64,000 bases of DNA. It comes from Saccharothrix sp. HUAS TT1 (lineage in GTDB: Bacteria; Actinomycetota; Actinomycetes; Mycobacteriales; Pseudonocardiaceae). A program made the translations under genes and the position numbers. This document shows, in pieces, positions 15,683 to 35,883 of this stretch. The notes under the pieces were generated by a model. That model was not told where the DNA came from. It worked only from the letters and a program-made list of their open reading frames with translations, and did no database searches. The stretch is taken from assembly GCF_040744945.1 (NCBI RefSeq), contig NZ_CP160453.1, positions 2,232,001-2,296,000 of the forward strand, in the 5' to 3' direction. The stretch's first letter is position 1; each line of letters begins with the position of its first letter.

Positions 15683-16150
15683 CTACTGCCGTTGACCACG
15701 GAAAGGGTCCGCGAAGTAGTCGTCGTCGTCCGGCTCCTCGGGCGCCGGGCGGGGCGCGGGGCGGCTCCGCGGCTGCCCGGCCCACGGCGGTCGGGCCGGT
15801 CCCGGGGGCGGGGCGGGCGCGGGCGGGGGTTCGGCCGCGGTCCTCAGCGGCGGCGGTCCGGCGAACGCCTCCACCGCCATCGCCAGGCCGTCGCCCAGCG
15901 CCTTGGCCAGCTCGTTGTAGCTGGTCCGCACGGCCGCGTCGGTCGCCAGCCGGGCCGTCTCCACCACCAGCGCGCCCACCGCGCCCGGTCCCCGCGCCAG
16001 CGCGTCCGGGTGCAGGTCGAGCGACTTCAGCTCACCGGTGGCGGTCGCCGTGGCGCGGGCCAGGCGGCTGGGGTGCTCGGCCGAGCCGGTGGTGCGGGCC
16101 AGCACGTCGGTCAGGGACTCGGCCGCCGCGAGTCGTTGTTCCTGCGTCAC
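15683..16150 (-). CDS. YbaB/EbfC-like protein with Pro-rich tail
   Basis: 155 residues. Residues 1-~100 are a helix-strand-helix body with a central ARATATATGELKSLDLHPDA segment in the position where YbaB proteins carry their beta-hairpin, then an amphipathic helix. Residues ~105-155 are Pro/Arg/Asp-rich and probably disordered. It overlaps the upstream YbaB-like gene by ATGA and is the last gene of a four-gene minus-strand module (17999 to 15683). The YbaB assignment is weaker than for its neighbour. Confidence 0.7.
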   Translation of the reverse strand: MTQEQRLAAAESLTDVLARTTGSAEHPSRLARATATATGELKSLDLHPDALARGPGAVGALVVETARLATDAAVRTSYNELAKALGDGLAMAVEAFAGPPPLRTAAEPPPAPAPPPGPARPPWAGQPRSRPAPRPAPEEPDDDDYFADPFRGQRQ

Positions 16151-16521
16151 CGCGAACCCCTCAGGTACGTGCCACCGAAGTCGTCGTCGTCCGGACCGCG
16201 CTCGAAACCGATCTCGGTCAACGCCCGCAGCGTCGCCGGGTCGGCCACCCGCTCCAGGGTCCGGTGCATCCGGGTGGAGGCGTCCTTGGAGGCCCGTGCG
16301 GCGACGCGCAGGATCTCGTCGGCCAGCGCCCGCGGTCCCATGTTCAGCGCCGCCGGCGACACCCGCACCTCCCGGGGCGGTCCGCCGGGCGCGGTGACGA
16401 CGGTGACCGCGCCGTCGGGTGACGACGCCCGGCCGAGCACCGGACCGGTGCGCGCCGCGTGCTCGGAAACCCGCCGCTCGGTGTCGGCGACCCGCTCGGC
16501 CGCCCGCTGCGTCTCGTCCAC
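16147..16521 (-). CDS. YbaB/EbfC-family protein
   Basis: 124 residues. The fold signature GRASSPDGAVTVVTAPGGPP (strand pair preceded by a helix) and a C-terminal amphipathic helix (LADEILRVAARASKDASTRM) match YbaB/EbfC proteins. The tail is short and acidic (DDDDFGG). It starts four bases after the NlpC/P60 gene stops and overlaps the next gene by ATGA, so two YbaB-type proteins are co-translated with WXG/EspC-type proteins. The two may form a heterodimer, given their adjacency; that is inference. Confidence 0.8.
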   Translation of the reverse strand: MDETQRAAERVADTERRVSEHAARTGPVLGRASSPDGAVTVVTAPGGPPREVRVSPAALNMGPRALADEILRVAARASKDASTRMHRTLERVADPATLRALTEIGFERGPDDDDFGGTYLRGSR

Positions 16522-16525
16522 GCCC

Positions 16526-17674
16526 TCAGCCCGTCGGTCGGTAGAAGCCCATGAAGCCCATGCCGCTGTTGCTCGTGCGGATCGGGTTGACCTGCACCGG
16601 GTCGCCCGCCTCCACCATCTGCCCGTTGCCGATCACCATGGCCACGTGCCCGTCCCACACCACCAGGTCGCCGGGCAGCAGCTGGTCGGCCGGCACCGAC
16701 GCGCCCATGGCCTGCGACGACGCGGGCCGCGGGATGTCGAACCCGGCGCCGCCGTAGGCCCACTGGGTCAGGCCGCTGCAGTCCGTGCCCTGGGGCGGGT
16801 TCGCGCCGCCCCACACGTACGGGGTGCCCAGGGCGGACAACGCGTTGCGCACGGCGCGCGCGGCGGTCTCGTTGGGCGCTTCGGCGCTGCTGCCGTCCGG
16901 CAGGTTCACGCCGACGCCGGTGCCGGGTTGCGGCGGGATGGCCACGGGCAGGTTCGGGCCGATCGCGCCGCCACCGCCGCCCCCACCACTGCCGCCCCCA
17001 CCTCCACCGCCGCTACCGCCTGTGCCGCCGCTGCCGCCGGTCCCGCTGGACGACGAGCCACCGCCGTCACCCGCGGACGACGTCGACGTGGAGCCGCCGC
17101 TCTCCACGCCCAACGGGTCGCCGAGGCCGGCGAAGTCCGGGTGCTGCAAGCTCCGGAGCTGCGCGACGACGTTCGTCAGCTCGGTGCGGACCCGGTCCAG
17201 CTCCCGAGCCGTCCTGCCCTCGTACTCGCGGGCCTTCGCGGTCACCTCCGCCGCCACCGCGAGCACCGCGCCGATCCCGCCGAACACGCCGGCCGCCACG
17301 GCCGCCGCCAGCCGGGGCCACGCCCAACCGGTGAACTCGTCGATCAGGGCCTGGATCGCGGTCCTGCCGGACGTCACCGCGTCGACCGCGGTGGTGGCCG
17401 CCTGCCGCGTGGTCGTCGCGTTGCGCGCCAACGTGCCCACGCCGCCGGAGAACGTCGCGACGCGGGCCTGGAAGGCGTTCGCCTTCTCGCCGTACCAGCC
17501 GGCCAGCGCCGCGTTCGCCGCGCCGGTGTGCCTGCCCTCGACCTCGGTGAGCGCCGAGGCCGCCCGCCCGAACGCCTCCGCCGCGCCCGTCGCACCGCCG
17601 GTGTCGCCGTCGAGCTGGGCCAGGTGGTCCTTCATCGGCCGGACCAGGGCCGCCAGGAAGCCGCCGACGTCCAC
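16526..17674 (-). CDS. WXG100-fused NlpC/P60 peptidoglycan hydrolase
   Basis: 382 residues from GTG 17674, one base after the EspC-like stop. Residues ~1-100 form a WXG100-like helical hairpin with turn W-Y-G (ALAGWYGEKANAFQAR). A hydrophobic stretch follows at ~105-130 (LAAAVAAGVFGGIGAVLAVA), then a Gly/Ser linker with two G9-like runs. The C-terminus is an NlpC/P60 domain: TPYVWGGANPPQGTDCSGLTQ (catalytic Cys) and GDLVVWDGHVAMVIG (catalytic His). It likely cleaves gamma-D-Glu-meso-DAP peptide bonds after type VII export. There is no Sec signal peptide, which fits a WXG-type route. An in-frame extension upstream would run through the neighbouring gene. Confidence 0.9.
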   Translation of the reverse strand: MDVGGFLAALVRPMKDHLAQLDGDTGGATGAAEAFGRAASALTEVEGRHTGAANAALAGWYGEKANAFQARVATFSGGVGTLARNATTTRQAATTAVDAVTSGRTAIQALIDEFTGWAWPRLAAAVAAGVFGGIGAVLAVAAEVTAKAREYEGRTARELDRVRTELTNVVAQLRSLQHPDFAGLGDPLGVESGGSTSTSSAGDGGGSSSSGTGGSGGTGGSGGGGGGGSGGGGGGGAIGPNLPVAIPPQPGTGVGVNLPDGSSAEAPNETAARAVRNALSALGTPYVWGGANPPQGTDCSGLTQWAYGGAGFDIPRPASSQAMGASVPADQLLPGDLVVWDGHVAMVIGNGQMVEAGDPVQVNPIRTSNSGMGFMGFYRPTG

Positions 17675-28826: not shown

Positions 28827-29816
28827 TCAGCTCGGCTCGCGGACCGACAGGCCGGCCGCCCGGTAGATGTCGTCCACGACCCGCATCGTGGCCACCGCGT
28901 CGTCCACCGTCGTCGGGAACGGCTTGCCGTGCAGCACGGCGTCCGCGAACGCCGCCAGCTGGTAGTCGTACGTCGGCCGGCGGTCGAAGCGCTCGACCCG
29001 GCGGTGCCCGTCCAGCTTCACCGCGAGCCGGTGCCCGTACTGCGGCGCGAAGGGGTTGAGCACCTTCAGGGAACCGTTGGCGCCCAACACCTTCGCGGTC
29101 AGCTTCACCAGCGAGCGCGACCACATCGACGTCACCACGGTCCCGGTGTGCCCGGCCGGGAACTTCAGCTCCGCCCGCATGAACCGGTCGATCCCGTCGC
29201 CCTTCAGCAACGCCCGCGCCGACTTCACCTCCGGCTCGCCGCCACCGAGGTGGCGCACCAGGTTCACCGGGTAGCAGCCGGTGTCCATCATCGCGCCGCC
29301 CGCCAGGTCCAGCGAGTACCGGATGTCGCCGAACCGCGGCAGCGGGATGCACATCCGCGCCTCCACGTGCCGCAACTCGCCGAGTTCCGCGACCACCTCC
29401 GGCAACCGCAGCGCCAACGGGTGGTAGCGGTAGTGGAACGCCTCCATCACCACCAACCCGCTGCTCCTGGCGACCGCCGCCACCTCCGCGGCCTCCTCGG
29501 CGTTGGCCGCGAACGGCTTCTCGCACAGCACGTGCTTCCCGGCCGCCAACGCCGCCAACGTCCACTTCCCGTGCAGCCCGTTGGGCAGCGGGATGTAGAC
29601 GGCGTCCAGGTTGGGGTCGTCCAGCAGCTCCTCGTACGTCGCGTGCACCCGCGGGATCCCGTGCCGGTCGGCGAACGCCTGCGCCCGCCCGACCTCCCGG
29701 GCCGCCACCGCCGACACCTCGACCGCCGCCACGGACCGCGCCGGCCGCACCAACGCCGACGGCACGATCCGCGCCGCCCCCAGAACCCCGATCCGCACGT
29801 GGTCGGCCATGCTCAT
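28827..29816 (-). CDS. Gfo/Idh/MocA-family oxidoreductase
   Basis: 329 residues from ATG 29816, overlapping the stop of the giant NACHT gene (ATGA); MADHV two codons in is an alternative start. The Rossmann N-terminus reads VRIGVLGAARIVPSALVRPA, followed by DPNLDAVYIPLPNGLHGKW and the family signature HVLCEKPFAAN. The C-terminal alpha/beta domain includes GGAMMDTGCYPVNLVRHLGG, with the usual catalytic-region D/Y. An NAD(P)-dependent sugar or inositol dehydrogenase-type enzyme; the substrate is not predictable. The 4-bp overlap makes translational coupling to the NACHT protein likely. Confidence 0.9.
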   Translation of the reverse strand: MSMADHVRIGVLGAARIVPSALVRPARSVAAVEVSAVAAREVGRAQAFADRHGIPRVHATYEELLDDPNLDAVYIPLPNGLHGKWTLAALAAGKHVLCEKPFAANAEEAAEVAAVARSSGLVVMEAFHYRYHPLALRLPEVVAELGELRHVEARMCIPLPRFGDIRYSLDLAGGAMMDTGCYPVNLVRHLGGGEPEVKSARALLKGDGIDRFMRAELKFPAGHTGTVVTSMWSRSLVKLTAKVLGANGSLKVLNPFAPQYGHRLAVKLDGHRRVERFDRRPTYDYQLAAFADAVLHGKPFPTTVDDAVATMRVVDDIYRAAGLSVREPS

Positions 29817-32800
29817 GTCACTACCCCCGCCACGATCCCGGGAATCGTCCTGTGATCGGGCATCCTCCGGATCTCCGGCACGTACGGGTCCAACTCGCCC
29901 TCCTCGAACCGCGCCGACCTCACCGCCCACCACACCTGGTTGCCCACGTCGCCCCCGATCCGGTACGACCCGTCCGCCAGCAGCACGGCCCACCCGTCAT
30001 CAGCGTTGATCAACTTGGCCAGTTCCGTGCCGCCGACGCTCCAGATCCGCGTCGTCCCGTCCGTCGACGTGGTGGCGAGGTGCTTGCCGTCCGGCGAGAA
30101 GGCCACGCACCTCACCGGCCCGAGGTGTCCGCGCAGAACGGCCACCTCCCGTCCCTGGAGACTCCACACACGAGCGGTCCCGTCGTCGGAGCACGTGGCG
30201 AGGAGCTTGCTGTCCGGTGCGAAGGCGACCGCCCACACCTCTGCGCCATGCCCGCGCAGCACCAGTGCGGTCCTGTGCCGCCTGGTCCGGACGCGAGCGG
30301 TTCCGTCCGCCGACGCGGTGGCGATGTACCGGCCGTCGGGAGAGAAGACCACCGAGGTGAGCCACCCGCTGTGGTCCGCGTAAGTGGCCGTGAGGCGACC
30401 GGAGGTGGTCCACACGTGAGCGGTCCCGTCCGCCGAAGCGGTCGCGAAGCGCTTCCCGTCCGGGCTGAACGCCACGGCTTCCACGGAGAGCGCATGACCT
30501 GACAGGACCAGGCGCTCCGAACCGCCGTCGACGGACCAGATGTGCGCCTCCCCACCGATCGTGCCGCCGAGCACCCGCCGACCGTCAGGGGAGAAGGCGA
30601 CCGAGACCACCGGGGTGTCGGAGGTCGAGTACACGAGGGGGAGGCGCTGGTCGAGGAAGTGGACCCGCAGCGCGTCGGTGAACGAGGCGACCGCGAGGGA
30701 CCTGCCGTCCGGTGCGAAGGCGATCGCCGCCACCTCGCCCCGCCGGATGGTCAGGGCCGGCCCGGCGCCGGCCCACAGGTGCGCGCCGCGGGTCGACGCG
30801 GTGGCCAGGGAGGCGCCGTCGGGCGAGAAGATCACCGTGGTCACCGGCCGCACCTGACCACCGTGGTGGTCGAGCGGATCACCGGTCGGTGTGCAGAACA
30901 GCACCTGCCGGTTGTTCGCCGTCGCGATCTCCTCACCGTCCGGCGAGAACGCCAGCACGTTGGTGCCGGGGTCCCGGCCGATCTCGGCTGTGCGGGTGCC
31001 GTCCGAGGCCCAGAGGGTGAGGGTGTGGTCGCTCGTGGTCGTCGTGGCGATGTGCTTGCCGTCCGGCGAGTAGGCGACGTCGTAGACCGGGGACGAGTGC
31101 TGCAGCGTCGCGACAGGGCTGCCGCCGATGGTCCAGATCCGCGCTGTGGTGTCGTGCGCTCCGGTGACGAGGTGTTCCCCGTCCGGTGAGAACGCCACTC
31201 CGCACAGTCCCCTGGTGTGGCCGGCGAGCGTCGAGACCGGCTCACCGTCGACGGTCCAGATGCGGACGGTCCCGTCGTCGGACGCGGTGGTGACGTGGCG
31301 GCGGTCCGGTGCGAACGCCACGGCTTCGATCTTCTCCTCGTGCCCGAGGAGCACCGCGACCTCATCACCGCCGAGGGTCCAGATCCGTGCGGTGCGGTCG
31401 CGCGAACCGGTGACGATGTGCTGTCCGCCGGGCGCGAACGCCACGCACCGCACGCCGTCCTGGTGTCCTCCCACGACCGTGACCAGGTCGCCGTCACGGG
31501 TCCAGATCCGCGCGGTGCCGTCGTCGGACGACGAGGCGAGGTGTTCGCCGGTCGGGGACCAGGCGACCCGGGTGACGTGCCCGGTGTGACCGGTCAGCGT
31601 CCGGAGCGCCTTCCGCGTCGCTCGCTCGACCAGCGTGACGGCCCAGCCACTGGCCACCGCGAGCACCGTGCCGTCGGGGGAGTAGGCGAGGGACTGCGCA
31701 CCGCCGACGGCGGTCACCACCGAGGCCGGGTCGCGGCCGACGACGGTCGCCTCGGCCAGCTCCGGGTGCTCCTCCACCCCGCGCACGCCGAGCAGCACCG
31801 CGCCGCGCCAGTCGCTGCCGGTCAACCGCGCGCCGGTCAGGTCGCCGCCGGTCATCCGGACGCCCCGGAAGTCCGCGCCGGCCAGGTCCGCCCCGGTGAG
31901 GTCCGCGTCGGTCAACCGCTGCCCGCGCAGGTCCGCCCCCGTCACCGCGGTGCCGCGCAGGTCGACCCCGGACAGGTCGCGGTGGCGCAGGTCGAGGTCG
32001 ACCAGGTGCTGCCGCACGGTCGCGGGCCCGCCCAGCCGGTCCCACACCGCCACCGCGTTCAGCCGCACGACCTTGTCGGCGCCCGGCCGCGTCGCGACCC
32101 GCACCGCCCACTCGCGGGCGGCGGCGTGGCCGGCGAGGTCGCAGAAGAAGTCCACCATCAACGGCGACATGGGCCTGCTCATCACGCTCGGCACGGCGCC
32201 GTCGCGGACCTGCTCGGCCGCCGCGTTGGCGACCAGCCACTCCATCACCGACTGGTGCACGAACCCGAAGCCGTCCTCCGTGTTGACCAGCAACGTGCCC
32301 GAGCCGACCGCGTGCGCCGCCTGCGCCGTCGAGTAGCCCCGCTCCACCAGCTCGGTCAACGTCTGCGCGACCGTCTCACCCAGGTCGGACGCCTGCACCG
32401 CGGCCGCCGTGCCCGACCACAGCCGCGACGCGAGCACCGTGCACACGCGCAGCCGTTCCAGCTCGTCGAACGACCGCAGCCCGGACGGGTGCCGCTGCCG
32501 CTCCGCCTCGTGCAGCAGCCAGAAGTCGACCAGCTCCCGGTACAGCTCGGCGGCGCTGATCCGGCCCTGCTCCTGCCGCACCTGCCGCAGCCGCCGCTCG
32601 TCCAGGTCGGCGATGAACGCCAGCATCCGCGGGTTGCGGGACAGGCCCAGCAGGTCGTGCACCTCGCGCAGCAGGTCGAACCGGCGCTCGGCCTGCCCGG
32701 CGTCACCCCGGTAGTGCCGGGTCAGGAAGTCGAGGACCTGCCCGTCGGTGAAGTCCTCCAGCACCGCCACCCGGCTGGAGCTCATCGCGGCGACCTGGTC

Positions 32801-35227
32801 GCCCAACGCCGTGAGCACCTGGTTGTGCGACCGGAAGTGCTGGCTGCGGCTCGTCAGCACGACCTTCGCCCGATCGCTCACCGCGACCAGCAGCGTGCGC
32901 AGGTACTCGGCGGCGTTGTCGTAGCCGACCCGCAGCTCCAGCTCGTCGAAGCCGTCGAACAGCAGCGCCAGCCGACCGCTGCCGATCATGTACCGGAGCT
33001 TCACCACGTCCAGCACCTCGACGCCCTCGCGCACCAGGTGCTGGGTCAGCAGCTCGTCCAGCGTCGGCGCCTTCTCCAGGCTGCGCAGCTCGACCAGCAC
33101 CGGCGACACGTTGCCCAGCCGCGACCGCAGCTCCCTGGCCAGCTGCCGCAGCAGGAACGACTTGCCGCGGCCGAAGTCGCCGAGCACCACGACGAACCGG
33201 GCCGCGTCCGGCGACAGCCACTCCAGCACCTGGTCCAGCGCGTTGTCCCGGACCTCGCCCGGGCCACGCCTGGTCAGCTCGTGGAACCGCTGCGGCACGT
33301 ACAGGTGGGCCGGGTAGATCGGGTCGTCGGCCAGCCGCGCCTGCTGGCGGTGCTCCTGCGCCCGCAGGTCGAGCATCCCCTGGTAGTCGACCCAGCTGCG
33401 CAGCCGGATGCCCAGGCTCAACGCCCGCGCGACCAGCTCGGCGGGCGCGGGCGCGCCCCCGTGCACCAGCTCGGACCGCACCGACCGGTCGTGCTCGGCG
33501 AACCGCACGTGCACGTCCCGCGCGAACCGCTCGACGCCGTCCGCCGTCACGTCGCCCTCGACCACGGCCACCGGCCACTGCTCGACGCCGCCACCAGAGG
33601 TGGGCTTGGTGACGCGCAGGTAGGCGTGCTCCAGGTAGGGCGTCACGGTCGCGCCGGGGTGGCTGATCCGCGTCGCCTCCGCCACCCGCTCGAAGAACGA
33701 GTCCCCGGCGAGCGGCGGGCGTGCCCGCTCCTCCTCGCGCGGTGTGGTGCGGAAGGCGTGGGCCGAGGTCGGCCTCAGCACGTGCCGGACGCGCCAGTCG
33801 GCGCCGTCCGGGCTGACCCGCGTGTCGCCCACCCACCGGCCCTGGTCGGGTTCGAACCGCCGGGCGTGCCGGGTGAAACCGCGCTCGTCGAACGACACCA
33901 GCTCGTACGACCCGGCGTCCGGCGTGCCGGTCAGCAGGTGGTCCACCAGGCCGGGCCGGACCAGCGCGTGCTTCACACCGGCCGTGGACCGGTGCACGAC
34001 GCCCAGTCGCAGCCAGCCCTTCGCCCGGTGCTCCTCCAGGTGCGCGGCGAACCGCCGCAGCTGGGCCGCGTCCACCTCGGGCGTGCCGTCGTGGACGTGG
34101 CTGTCGGCGACGGTCGAGTTCAGGCCCGCCACGGCCACGCGCAGGTCCGGCGCGGTGAAGAACGTCCAGTGCTCGTCCGGCGTGAAGGTGGCGCCCGCGT
34201 CCCGGTAGAACCGGTCGAACGCCTCGCCGTACTGCTTCCACTTGCGCCAGTAGGGCGGCACCGGCTCCCGCTGCTCCGCCTCCATGTCCAGGAAGTAGGC
34301 GCGGCACGCGACCAGGTTCACGTCGTGCGGGCCGGGCACGACCACCACCCGGTCGCGCGGCAGCTCGACCGCCTCGGCCAGCCCCTCCAGGAACGCGAAC
34401 GCCTGCTCGAACTCGGTGCGCAGCCCGCGTTCGGTGAGGTCGCCCGCGACCACGACCAGGTCCGGGCGCAGCCCCTCCCGCGCCGCCAGGTGCTCCAGGT
34501 CGTGGTGCAGCACGGTGAGCCGGTGGTCGCCGTCGCGGCCGAAGCGGGTGCCTGCCAGGTGCAGGACGTCGAGCCGGTCGGGACCGCGGACGTCGCCGCG
34601 GCGGCGGTGGTGGTCCAGGGCGTCCGGCCAGCTCAGGCGCAGCAGGTCGGCGGTGATGGCGTAGCAGTCCGGCGCCGTGCGGCCGGCCGTGGCGATGATG
34701 CCGACGACGCGGCCCGTCACCGGGTCCCACACCGGGCTGCCGCTGTAGCCGGGCTGGACCTGGAGCGCGGAGGTCGAGTCGAGCTGCAGGTAGCCGTTGC
34801 CGACCCGGCCGCGGACGACCGCGCGCACCCAGGCGCCGTCCGGGCGGGCCGGGCGGTCGGGGTAGCCGAAGACGTCGACCTCGTGACCGGGGCCGGGCAG
34901 CGTGGTGATCAGCTTGGCGGGGGTGGCCCCGGCGGGGGCATCCTCGGCCAGTTCGAGGCCGGCGACGTCCTGGCCCGGCGCGCCTTCGCGGGGAGGCGGT
35001 GGCAGCCACTGCCGCACGGTCGCGCGGATCGCCGCGCGACCGGGGAAGTCGACCAGCACGGGGTCGTCGGGCGGCGCGCCGCTGAGCCCGTCCCGCCCGA
35101 CGGCCAGGTTGACCACGTGCGCGCAGGTGAGCACCCGGCGTTCGCCGACCAGGACGCCGACCCCGACGACGTGCCCCGCCGCGTCGGTGAACCGGACGAC
35201 CGAGCCGGGTAAAGAGCCGTCGGGCAT
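29813..35227 (-). CDS. Trypsin-like protease / phosphoesterase / NACHT / pentapeptide / WD40 multidomain protein
   Basis: 1804 residues. In order: trypsin-like serine protease (1-~205) with His37 in LTCAHVV, Asp87 in GQDVAGLEL and Ser162 in QPGYSGSP; a calcineurin-like phosphoesterase fold (~215-455) with GD(263) kept but other metal ligands altered ([18 protein letters not shown]); an unassigned region (~505-640); a NACHT NTPase with Walker A GDFGRGKS (683-690), Walker [11 protein letters not shown] (753-762) and sensor LTSRSQHF; pentapeptide repeats (~1085-1150, A-D-L-x-G type); and fourteen WD40 repeats (~1175-1735), enough for two seven-bladed propellers. STAND proteins of this form act as ligand-triggered switches; proteolysis as the output, in immunity or cell death, is inferred. 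The start is ATG 35227, 29 bp from the divergent upp start, with no clear Shine-Dalgarno sequence. Confidence 0.93.
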
Positions 35228-35244
35228 CGCCTAGAGGTACCACA

Positions 35245-35250
35245 TACTGT
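35245..35250 (+). promoter_or_regulatory. -10 element for leaderless upp
   Basis: TACTGT (TANNNT) ends exactly 7 bases before the upp ATG at 35257, so transcription would begin at the A of the ATG. The -35 region would overlap the start codon of the divergent NACHT gene. Confidence 0.55.
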
Positions 35251-35256
35251 TCGACC

Positions 35257-35883
35257 ATGGACGTCCTCGTTGTCGATCACCCACTGGCCAGGGCGCGGCT
35301 GACCACCATGCGCGACGCCCGCACCGACAACGCGGCGTTCCGCGCCGCGCTGCACGAGCTGACCGTGATGCTGGTGTACGAGGCCACGCGCGACCTGCCG
35401 GTGGCCGAGGAGCGCGTGCACACGCCGGTCGCCCGCACCACCGGCTACCGCCTGGCCAACCCGCCGCTGCTCGTCCCCGTGCTGCGGGCCGGCCTCGGCA
35501 TGGCCGACCAGGCGCACAAGCTGATCCCGGACGCGCAGATGGGGTTCGTGGGCCTGGCGCGCGACGAGGAAACCCTCCAGCCGACCCCGTACATGGAGTC
35601 CCTGCCCGACTCCCTGGCCGGCCGTCCGGTCTTCGTGCTGGACCCGATGCTCGCCACCGGCGGCTCCATGGCCTACACGATCCGCCTGCTGACCGACCGC
35701 GGCGCCACCGACGTGACCGCGATCTGCGCCCTGGCCGCCCCCGAGGGCATCAAGCACCTGGAGGACTCCGGCCTCCCCGTCCGCCTGATCACCGCCAGCG
35801 TCGACGAACGCCTGAACGACTCGGGCTTCATCGTCCCCGGCCTGGGCGACGCCGGCGACCGTCAATACGGCTCCGTCCACTAA
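35257..35883 (+). CDS. upp: Uracil phosphoribosyltransferase
   Basis: 208 residues, the normal length. PRPP-binding motif [18 protein letters not shown] (residues ~127-144), the uracil-binding C-terminus DRQYGSVH region with [14 protein letters not shown], and the N-terminal [14 protein letters not shown] are all typical. It makes UMP from uracil and PRPP, salvaging uracil released by the phosphorylases in this window. Divergent from the NACHT gene with 29 bp between start codons, and probably leaderless. It converges on the NAD(P)-binding protein gene across a 149-bp palindromic element. Confidence 0.96.

What the first reader, a model, noticed from the sequence alone, without database searches (positions are those of the whole stretch)
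29813..35227. Five-module STAND giant: protease + phosphoesterase + NACHT + pentapeptide + double WD40 propeller
One 1804-residue reading frame joins an N-terminal trypsin-like protease with an intact-looking triad (H37, D87, S162), a calcineurin-like fold, a NACHT NTPase with intact Walker A/B, pentapeptide repeats and exactly fourteen WD40 repeats. Protease-NACHT fusions and WD40-sensing STANDs are known from antiphage and cell-death systems, but this order, with both a protease and a phosphoesterase module ahead of NACHT and a pentapeptide linker, is one I do not recognise. The straightforward model is a sensor (WD40) to switch (NACHT) to protease output.
Basis: partly seen in the sequence, partly recalled or inferred. 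Interest (0 to 1): 0.85.

Follow-up and report, generated by a model that had tools for sequence, protein, structure and literature searches.

The report
NLR-like protease with dead phosphoesterase
A soil actinomycete carries a giant one-protein alarm built like animal inflammasome receptors, whose output looks like a protease and whose second 'enzyme' has lost its active site, as has happened several times in its relatives, so a former effector may have become a connector part.

Summary
The 1804-aa frame (29813-35227, minus) is real and the protease triad H37/D87/S162 is present. The MPE is degenerate here (2 of 5 metal-site motifs). The order is not unique: 112 of 222 nonredundant relatives found with this query have it, and the same core also carries a TIR or HTH head or nothing before the MPE. 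The triad is kept in 120 of 126 gap-free trypsin rows; the MPE site is complete in 60 of 134 trypsin, 1 of 46 TIR and 13 of 22 MPE-first rows, with repeated changes on the tree. Two loci place a stand-alone TIR-degenerate-MPE protein beside an HTH-MPE-NACHT-WD40 receptor. In 14 of 25 genomes of the genus the gene lies divergently beside upp; 11 further slots are empty or hold remnants. Best reading: an immune STAND with protease output and a pseudo-phosphoesterase connector. New variant of a known kind; function untested.

The parts
29813..35227 (-). whole gene, 1804 aa STAND protein
   Evidence: 119 other listed homologues
34613..35227 (-). residues 1-205: chymotrypsin/trypsin-fold protease head; H37 at 35117-35119, D87 at 34967-34969, S162 at 34742-34744
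33773..34612 (-). residues 206-485: calcineurin-like phosphoesterase fold with degenerate metal site
   Evidence: PF22739 E 6e-38, 5e-40
32018..33352 (-). residues 626-1070: NACHT NTPase and following helical region; Walker A 33158-33181, Walker B 32942-32971 (residues 753-762)
31778..32005 (-). residues 1075-1150: pentapeptide repeats
   Evidence: PF00805 E 7e-26
30878..31711 (-). residues 1173-1450: first 7-bladed WD40 propeller
30008..30877 (-). residues 1451-1740: second WD40 propeller (repeats 8-14)
   Evidence: 2ymu_A aligned over 555 residues at rmsd 12.4
35257..35883 (+). upp, uracil phosphoribosyltransferase: fixed divergent neighbour, 29 bases between the two start codons
   Evidence: PF14681
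28827..29816 (-). GFO/IDH/MocA oxidoreductase on the other side of the slot; likely start at 29814-29816 (ATGA overlap with the giant gene's stop)
   Evidence: PF01408; tblastn match begins at residue 62 of the longer frame in 5 of the 9 fetched slots with a match, and at 1, 47, 54 and 56 in the others; start inferred

Best explanation
A one-protein, NLR-like immune receptor. The two WD40 propellers bind a trigger (probably a phage product), the NACHT module exchanges nucleotide and oligomerises, and the N-terminal protease domains are brought together and cut a substrate that leads to abortive infection or dormancy. The phosphoesterase fold is no longer an enzyme in this protein: it is a pseudoenzyme kept as a connector between head and switch, as is the inactive endonuclease fold. 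In the wider family the phosphoesterase sits first and is mostly complete in MPE-first proteins that resemble the validated DS-8 defence protein; where a TIR or, often, a trypsin head stands in front, its metal site has been lost, several times independently. Shown here: domains, intact triad and Walker motifs, degenerate MPE, the family pattern, repeated state changes on the tree, a fixed but optional locus, fast-diverging WD40. Inferred: trigger, oligomerisation, proteolysis, defence, and the direction and order of events in evolution.
For: Triad HDS in 108 of 112 gap-free rows of the 120 listed and 120 of 126 gap-free rows of 134 nonredundant trypsin rows. MPE site 5/5 in 60 of 134 TRYP, 1 of 46 TIR, 13 of 22 MPE-first and 1 of 20 unassigned rows. 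State changes on a tree of iREase+NACHT only: 13 (211 rows, 191 labelled, FastTree); 10 (97 rows, 89 labelled, IQ-TREE quick), and 8, 7 and 6 after collapsing branches with support under 80, 90 and 95; within trypsin rows 5, then 4, 4 and 3. 30 positions of the MPE stay over 85% conserved in complete, trypsin-degenerate and TIR-degenerate classes alike, while 21 are conserved in the complete class only, among them the metal-site positions D226, Q228, N300, H301, H435 and H437: the fold is kept and the site is lost. Identity to P0002 is 86-87% in trypsin, iREase and NACHT, 79% in MPE, 57 and 50% in the propellers; dN of the propellers is 2.6 to 4.6 times that of NACHT in four comparisons. NAIP/NLRC4 fold match. 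The slot beside upp is occupied in 14 of 25 genomes of the genus, empty or remnant in others. The MPE-NACHT protein DS-8 defends against phage and needs both the MPE site and the NACHT (PMC13092281, passages); a protease-fused AVAST protein, Avs1b, activates a nuclease by cleavage (PMC12799240, passages).
Against: No activity, trigger or substrate was tested. No substrate is evident next door: seven neighbouring frames tested are ordinary metabolic or cell-envelope genes, unlike the nuclease-protease pairs of PMC12799240. Two decayed copies (G127, G152) keep an intact triad (read by eye) in frames that have lost NACHT, so a freed protease head is not obviously toxic. 51 of 55 trypsin rows with a complete MPE also keep the triad, so site loss does not follow automatically from having a head; 9 of 22 MPE-first rows have no complete site. 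An independent-pairs test of TIR head against MPE state had only 5 pairs and was not significant. dN of the trypsin module (0.093 against S. deserti) is no lower than that of NACHT (0.087) or iREase (0.100); its low dN/dS (0.22) there comes from a higher dS. The fixed chromosomal locus is unlike a mobile defence island.
Confidence: 0.6

Rival explanations
1. The phosphoesterase fold, dead or alive, is a homotypic adaptor (an effector-associated domain in function): stand-alone head-MPE proteins dock on receptors through MPE-MPE contact, so one sensor can drive several effectors. This is compatible with the best explanation and goes further.
For: L084 (Actinoplanes rectilineatus): TIR-MPE frame of 474 aa at 16039-17460 (TIR_2 E 8e-31, Metallophos over cut-off), 705 bases from an HTH-MPE-iREase-NACHT-PPR-WD40 gene, with no iREase or NACHT hit of its own. 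L036 (Catellatospora vulcania): TIR-MPE of 501 aa beside HTH-MPE-iREase-NACHT-PPR-WD40, Trypco1 and TRYP-MPE-iREase-NACHT-PPR-WD40. 71 of 118 newly found proteins are TIR-MPE without NACHT, 0 of 71 with a complete site; some lie on contigs of 6.7 to 10 Mb and are not named partial, e.g. P0203, P0209, P0211, P0227, P0253.
Against: Only two adjacent pairs were seen among 79 loci examined (a third TIR-MPE frame, in L099, overlaps the main gene and looks like a frameshifted copy). The 71 include rows named partial or on short contigs. A sample of 345 actinomycete genomes gave no clear complete stand-alone TIR-MPE. No interaction was tested. The window's genome shows no partner beside the gene.
Confidence: 0.35
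2. The phosphoesterase still has a job at the ligand level: a degenerate site that binds a nucleotide second messenger and gates the protease.
For: Fold and 30 positions kept after loss of the metal site, e.g. H223, D302, N370, H377; the only solved relative by sequence is Lmo2642 (2xmo, E 1e-4; that it is a phosphodiesterase is recalled); the DS-8 authors expect a cyclic nucleotide as its substrate.
Against: The changed positions differ among losses, and the MPE is the least conserved domain ahead of the pentapeptides (48-52% identity where NACHT is 62-69%, six comparisons). No nucleotide cyclase was looked for.
Confidence: 0.15
3. Not immunity but a housekeeping or developmental regulator: a large protease receptor controlling differentiation or pyrimidine metabolism beside upp.
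For: Fixed position with upp, 29 bases between start codons in 9 of 10 relatives measured and 31 in the tenth; conserved flanks; likely ATGA overlap with the oxidoreductase.
Against: No NA-iREase3 match in 9 of 25 genomes of the genus, with empty and decayed slots; over cut-off in 12 of 150 genomes of the family; propellers diverge faster than the rest.
Confidence: 0.15
4. The protease acts by cutting the receptor itself (self-release of head-MPE) rather than an external target.
For: No substrate gene evident next door; the linker between MPE and iREase is disordered (488-491 and 493-508 under pLDDT 50) and only 14-41% identical in eight relatives.
Against: No cleavage motif identified; such linkers are common.
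Confidence: 0.1

Closest known systems
DS-8 antiphage protein (NCBIfam NF053861; PMC13092281, passages read)
   Same: MPE and NACHT in one protein; MPE homologous (E 4e-5 here; 1e-16 to 2e-9 in seven MPE-first proteins)
   Different: DS-8 needs its MPE active site; here the site is degenerate, a protease stands in front, and iREase3, pentapeptides and WD40 are present. Match is far below the family cut-off of 790 bits
DS-9A antiphage phosphoesterase (NF053862; same paper)
   Same: nearest MPE model: E 3e-15 here, 6e-33 to 2e-23 in seven MPE-first proteins
   Different: two-gene system with a HAD phosphatase; below the cut-off of 420 bits; catalytic residues required there
Avs1 and other nuclease-protease pairs (PMC12799240, passages read)
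   Different: no MBL-fold pro-nuclease gene beside the window gene; NACHT with WD40 instead
Actinobacterial trypsin- or TIR-nSTAND1-WD40 proteins (own genome: L131, L132)
   Same: swappable trypsin/TIR head, STAND, WD40
   Different: nSTAND1 instead of NACHT; no MPE or NA-iREase3 among the matches shown
Apaf-1 and NAIP/NLRC4 (solved structures)
   Same: STAND module and double WD40 folds match (Apaf-1 3sfz 524 aligned, rmsd 14.2)
   Different: here the head is itself a protease, not a CARD (recalled); similarity is structural
Trypsin/Trypco and EAD conflict systems of Kaur et al. (PMC7159879, PMC8195603; passages read)
   Same: trypsin heads, TIR heads, STANDs; Trypco1 directly upstream of the trypsin-headed gene in 4 of 14 trypsin loci: L036 (Pfam), L029, L030, L037 (phmmer)
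   Different: this six-module order was not in the passages I read; no Trypco beside the window gene or in the other Saccharothrix/Actinosynnema loci

Membership tests
STAND/NACHT NLR-like receptor | NACHT with Walker A and B | tested here: met
   PF05729 over cut-off; GKS and DGFDE present; G688, K689, D758, D761, E762 invariant in 120 rows
STAND/NACHT NLR-like receptor | NLR-type NTPase module fold | tested here: met
STAND/NACHT NLR-like receptor | ligand-triggered oligomerisation | not testable with these tools
   needs protein
Trypsin-like (S1-fold) protease | His/Asp/Ser triad in order with GxSG | tested here: met
Trypsin-like (S1-fold) protease | acidic S1 residue six before the Ser (Arg/Lys specificity; rule recalled) | tested here: not met
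   position 156 is Q here and R in 84 of 126 rows; trypsin fold, not evidently trypsin specificity
Active calcineurin-like phosphoesterase | complete five-motif metal site | tested here: not met
   2 of 5 motifs
DS-8 antiphage system | NF053861 score over 790 bits | tested here: not met
   21.6 bits, MPE stretch only
DS-8 antiphage system | catalytic MPE residues, required for defence there | tested here: not met
   three of five metal-site motifs broken; requirement from PMC13092281
Avs1-type nuclease-protease pair | MBL-fold nuclease gene immediately upstream | tested here: not met
   upp is the upstream neighbour
EAD-type adaptor system | same domain on receptor and on separate effector in one locus | tested here: inconclusive
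   seen with MPE in L036 and L084; not beside the window gene; interaction untested

The most novel reading that the evidence does not exclude
An entire effector enzyme has been turned into the docking part of bacterial NLR-like receptors: phosphoesterase-first receptors (DS-8-like) gained TIR or trypsin heads several times, the phosphoesterase then died and survived as a homotypic adaptor, so that stand-alone TIR-dead-phosphoesterase proteins can plug into neighbouring phosphoesterase-NACHT-WD40 receptors.
Probability: 0.3. Interest if true: 0.82.

Novelty: new variant of a known kind. Interest (0 to 1): 0.62.

Why it matters
It gives a natural experiment on how immune receptors change output: one receptor core (dead or live phosphoesterase, inactive endonuclease fold, NACHT, pentapeptides, two propellers) is found with at least four different fronts (none, TIR, trypsin, HTH), and the active site of what may be the older effector is lost in several lineages. 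If the dead phosphoesterase is a dock, this would show one way in which adaptor domains of bacterial immunity arise. It also predicts cross-talk between stand-alone TIR-MPE proteins and neighbouring receptors, testable in laboratory strains.

Tried and rejected
Considered and rejected: (1) chance frame: refuted by 119 other listed homologues and motif conservation. (2) Unique architecture: refuted. (3) Two active enzymes in this protein: MPE site broken. (4) Mobile defence island: flanks are shared with the seven named Saccharothrix/Actinosynnema loci, and seven neighbouring frames tested are ordinary genes. (5) Trypco partner: none beside the window gene; the only Trypco1 found in its genome is about 47 kb beyond the window, and no Trypco2 match. 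(6) A freed protease being toxic, so decayed copies should have a broken triad: broken in G161, intact in G127 and G152, so not supported. (7) TIR head causing MPE loss: independent-pairs test not significant, 5 pairs. (8) Adjacency of stand-alone TIR-MPE in a wider sample: 26 of 345 genomes had a match, mostly full-length proteins; two short frames with full-length matches (677 and 764 aa) lie in fragmented assemblies and were not looked at further. (9) dN/dS as proof that the protease is the most constrained part: its ratio is lowest in three of four comparisons (S. deserti, L035, L026; iREase is lower in L028), but its dN is about that of NACHT, so I do not rest on it.

Limits: the sets were gathered by similarity to this protein and its relatives. 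BARE (MPE-first) is defined by an M start 3-60 aa before the MPE and may hold wrong starts or truncated genes; 20 rows could not be assigned. L097 gave no NACHT frame and was dropped; 12 of 270 sequences had no usable MPE-iREase core. Local profiles were built from this family and lean towards it. FastTree and quick trees; direction of change is not inferred except in the Dollo count of 14, which assumes loss only and a root on P0172. dN/dS is Nei-Gojobori on a high-GC gene with uncertain WD40 alignment, to be read only between domains. The S1-site rule and terms such as abortive infection are recalled. Foldseek's second look shows a domain's best matches and excludes nothing; no solved relative of the NACHT stretch was found by sequence at E 0.01.

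Literature: eight answered searches; I saw no listed title that names this architecture. PMC13092281, PMC12799240, PMC13236601, PMC10907252, PMC7159879 and PMC8195603 were read as passages only; most subscription papers and preprints are not held.

Full report

Enzymes alive and dead. H37, D87 and S162 stand in the expected motifs. Of the 120 listed homologues (this protein included), 108 of 112 without gaps keep the triad; in the nonredundant set 120 of 126 gap-free trypsin rows do. The phosphoesterase of this protein keeps 2 of 5 metal-site motifs. Across 222 nonredundant rows the complete site is found in 60 of 134 trypsin-headed, 1 of 46 TIR-headed, 13 of 22 MPE-first and 1 of 20 unassigned proteins. 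TIR heads were confirmed by Pfam in the seven TIR-type loci tested; an eighth locus, L084, has an HTH head. Thirty MPE positions stay above 85% conserved in the complete and both degenerate classes; twenty-one are conserved in the complete class only, among them the metal-site positions D226, Q228, N300, H301, H435 and H437. So the fold is kept while the site goes.

How often. On a tree made without the trypsin or MPE columns (iREase+NACHT), the MPE state changes at least 13 times (211 rows, 191 labelled) or 10 times (97 rows, 89 labelled). After collapsing branches with support under 80, 90 and 95 this is 8, 7 and 6; within trypsin rows it is 5 uncollapsed, then 4, 4 and 3. These are counts of change without direction; that losses prevail is an inference from the number of motifs. 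The link with TIR heads is not statistically independent of the tree (5 pairs, median p 0.25). Against a simple handover, 51 of 55 gap-free trypsin rows with a complete MPE keep the triad, and 9 of 22 MPE-first rows lack a complete site.

Head swapping and split systems. The same core carries trypsin, TIR, HTH (L084; L036) or nothing in front, and a phosphorylase-superfamily (PNP) head precedes iREase-NACHT-pentapeptides in P0175. In Catellatospora vulcania (L036) an HTH-MPE-iREase-NACHT-PPR-WD40 gene, a stand-alone TIR-MPE, Trypco1 and a TRYP-MPE-iREase-NACHT-PPR-WD40 gene lie together. In Actinoplanes rectilineatus (L084) a TIR-MPE frame lies 705 bases from an HTH-headed receptor. The third protein search gave 71 TIR-MPE proteins without NACHT among 118 new sequences, 0 of 71 with a complete site; some are partial. 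This suggests, but does not show, that the dead phosphoesterase is a docking part.

Locus. The host probably belongs to Saccharothrix: the closest named proteins and loci are from that genus. In its genus upp is in 25 of 25 genomes and NA-iREase3 over cut-off in 16 of 25; by coordinates 14 of the 16, the window's genome included, have it next to upp on the other strand. The 11 other slots were fetched: in six upp lies beside the oxidoreductase with no giant gene, two (G150, G167) lack the oxidoreductase match as well, and three hold decayed copies: G161 lost the catalytic Ser region, G127 and G152 keep a triad but have lost NACHT and change frame (triads read by eye). Start codons of upp and the giant gene are 29 bases apart in the window and in 9 of 10 relatives measured, 31 in the tenth. 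The gene thus sits at a fixed place but is optional, and has decayed at least three times. Its propellers change fastest: identity to P0002 is 86-87% for trypsin, iREase and NACHT, 79% MPE, 57 and 50% for the propellers. Against S. deserti (L025) dN is 0.093 trypsin, 0.087 NACHT, 0.100 iREase, 0.148 MPE, 0.37 and 0.40 propellers, and dN/dS 0.22, 0.39, 0.50, 0.54, 0.76 and 0.60; the low trypsin ratio comes from a higher dS. This is what a sensor under changing pressure would show, though uncertain repeat alignment adds to it.

Compared with the known. DS-8, a metallophosphatase-NACHT protein, protects against phage and needs its phosphatase residues (PMC13092281). Seven MPE-first proteins match the DS-8 model at E 1e-16 to 2e-9 and DS-9A at 6e-33 to 2e-23, far under the curated cut-offs. 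Trypsin-like proteases fused to AVAST and Hachiman proteins activate a nuclease encoded next to them (PMC12799240); no such gene is here. A CARD-NLR-like system also needs a trypsin-like serine for lysis (PMC13236601). So it looks built to work like an NLR-type receptor with a protease output, is not DS-8 and not Avs1, and is filed as a new variant of a known kind.

Verdict. The interest lies in the repeated death of a phosphoesterase inside a receptor with changing heads, and in stand-alone TIR-dead-MPE partners.

Noticed in passing
window 35227-35257: Only 29 bases separate the divergent start codons of the giant gene and upp; the spacing is the same in 9 of 10 relatives, also beside the three decayed copies. 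Promoters must overlap the neighbouring gene or transcripts be nearly leaderless.
   Followed up: partly
window 29813-29816: Likely ATGA overlap between the giant gene's stop and the start of the downstream oxidoreductase, suggesting coupled translation (start inferred).
   Followed up: no
L031 6426-9953; genomes G021, G158: Tandem pairs: in L031 a trypsin-MPE-iREase-NACHT-PPR frame without WD40 directly upstream of the full-length copy; G021 and G158 have two NA-iREase3 frames, one short (1056 and 1176 aa), beside upp.
   Followed up: no
L029, L030, L036, L037: Trypco1 directly upstream of the trypsin-headed receptor in 4 of 14 trypsin loci, none of them Saccharothrix or Actinosynnema.
   Followed up: partly
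L129, L130, L131, L132, L133 (own genome): Further nSTAND1 proteins with interchangeable heads: trypsin-nSTAND1-histidine kinase-receiver (L129, head 49% identical to the window's), trypsin-nSTAND1-WD40 (L131), TIR-nSTAND1-WD40 (L132), HTH-nSTAND1 (L133), nSTAND1 (L130).
   Followed up: partly
P0157: MPE-iREase-NACHT fused to a C-terminal stretch matching the ATPase PtuA (NF041760, E 5e-42, below its cut-off).
   Followed up: no
TIR-type loci such as L043: The TIR class also seems to sit at a conserved chromosomal place: three upstream frames of L043 have matches in 47-52 of 59 TIR loci.
   Followed up: partly
L123 (G127), L119 (G152): Decayed copies keep an intact trypsin triad without NACHT, in G152 running straight into WD40-like repeats.
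   Followed up: partly
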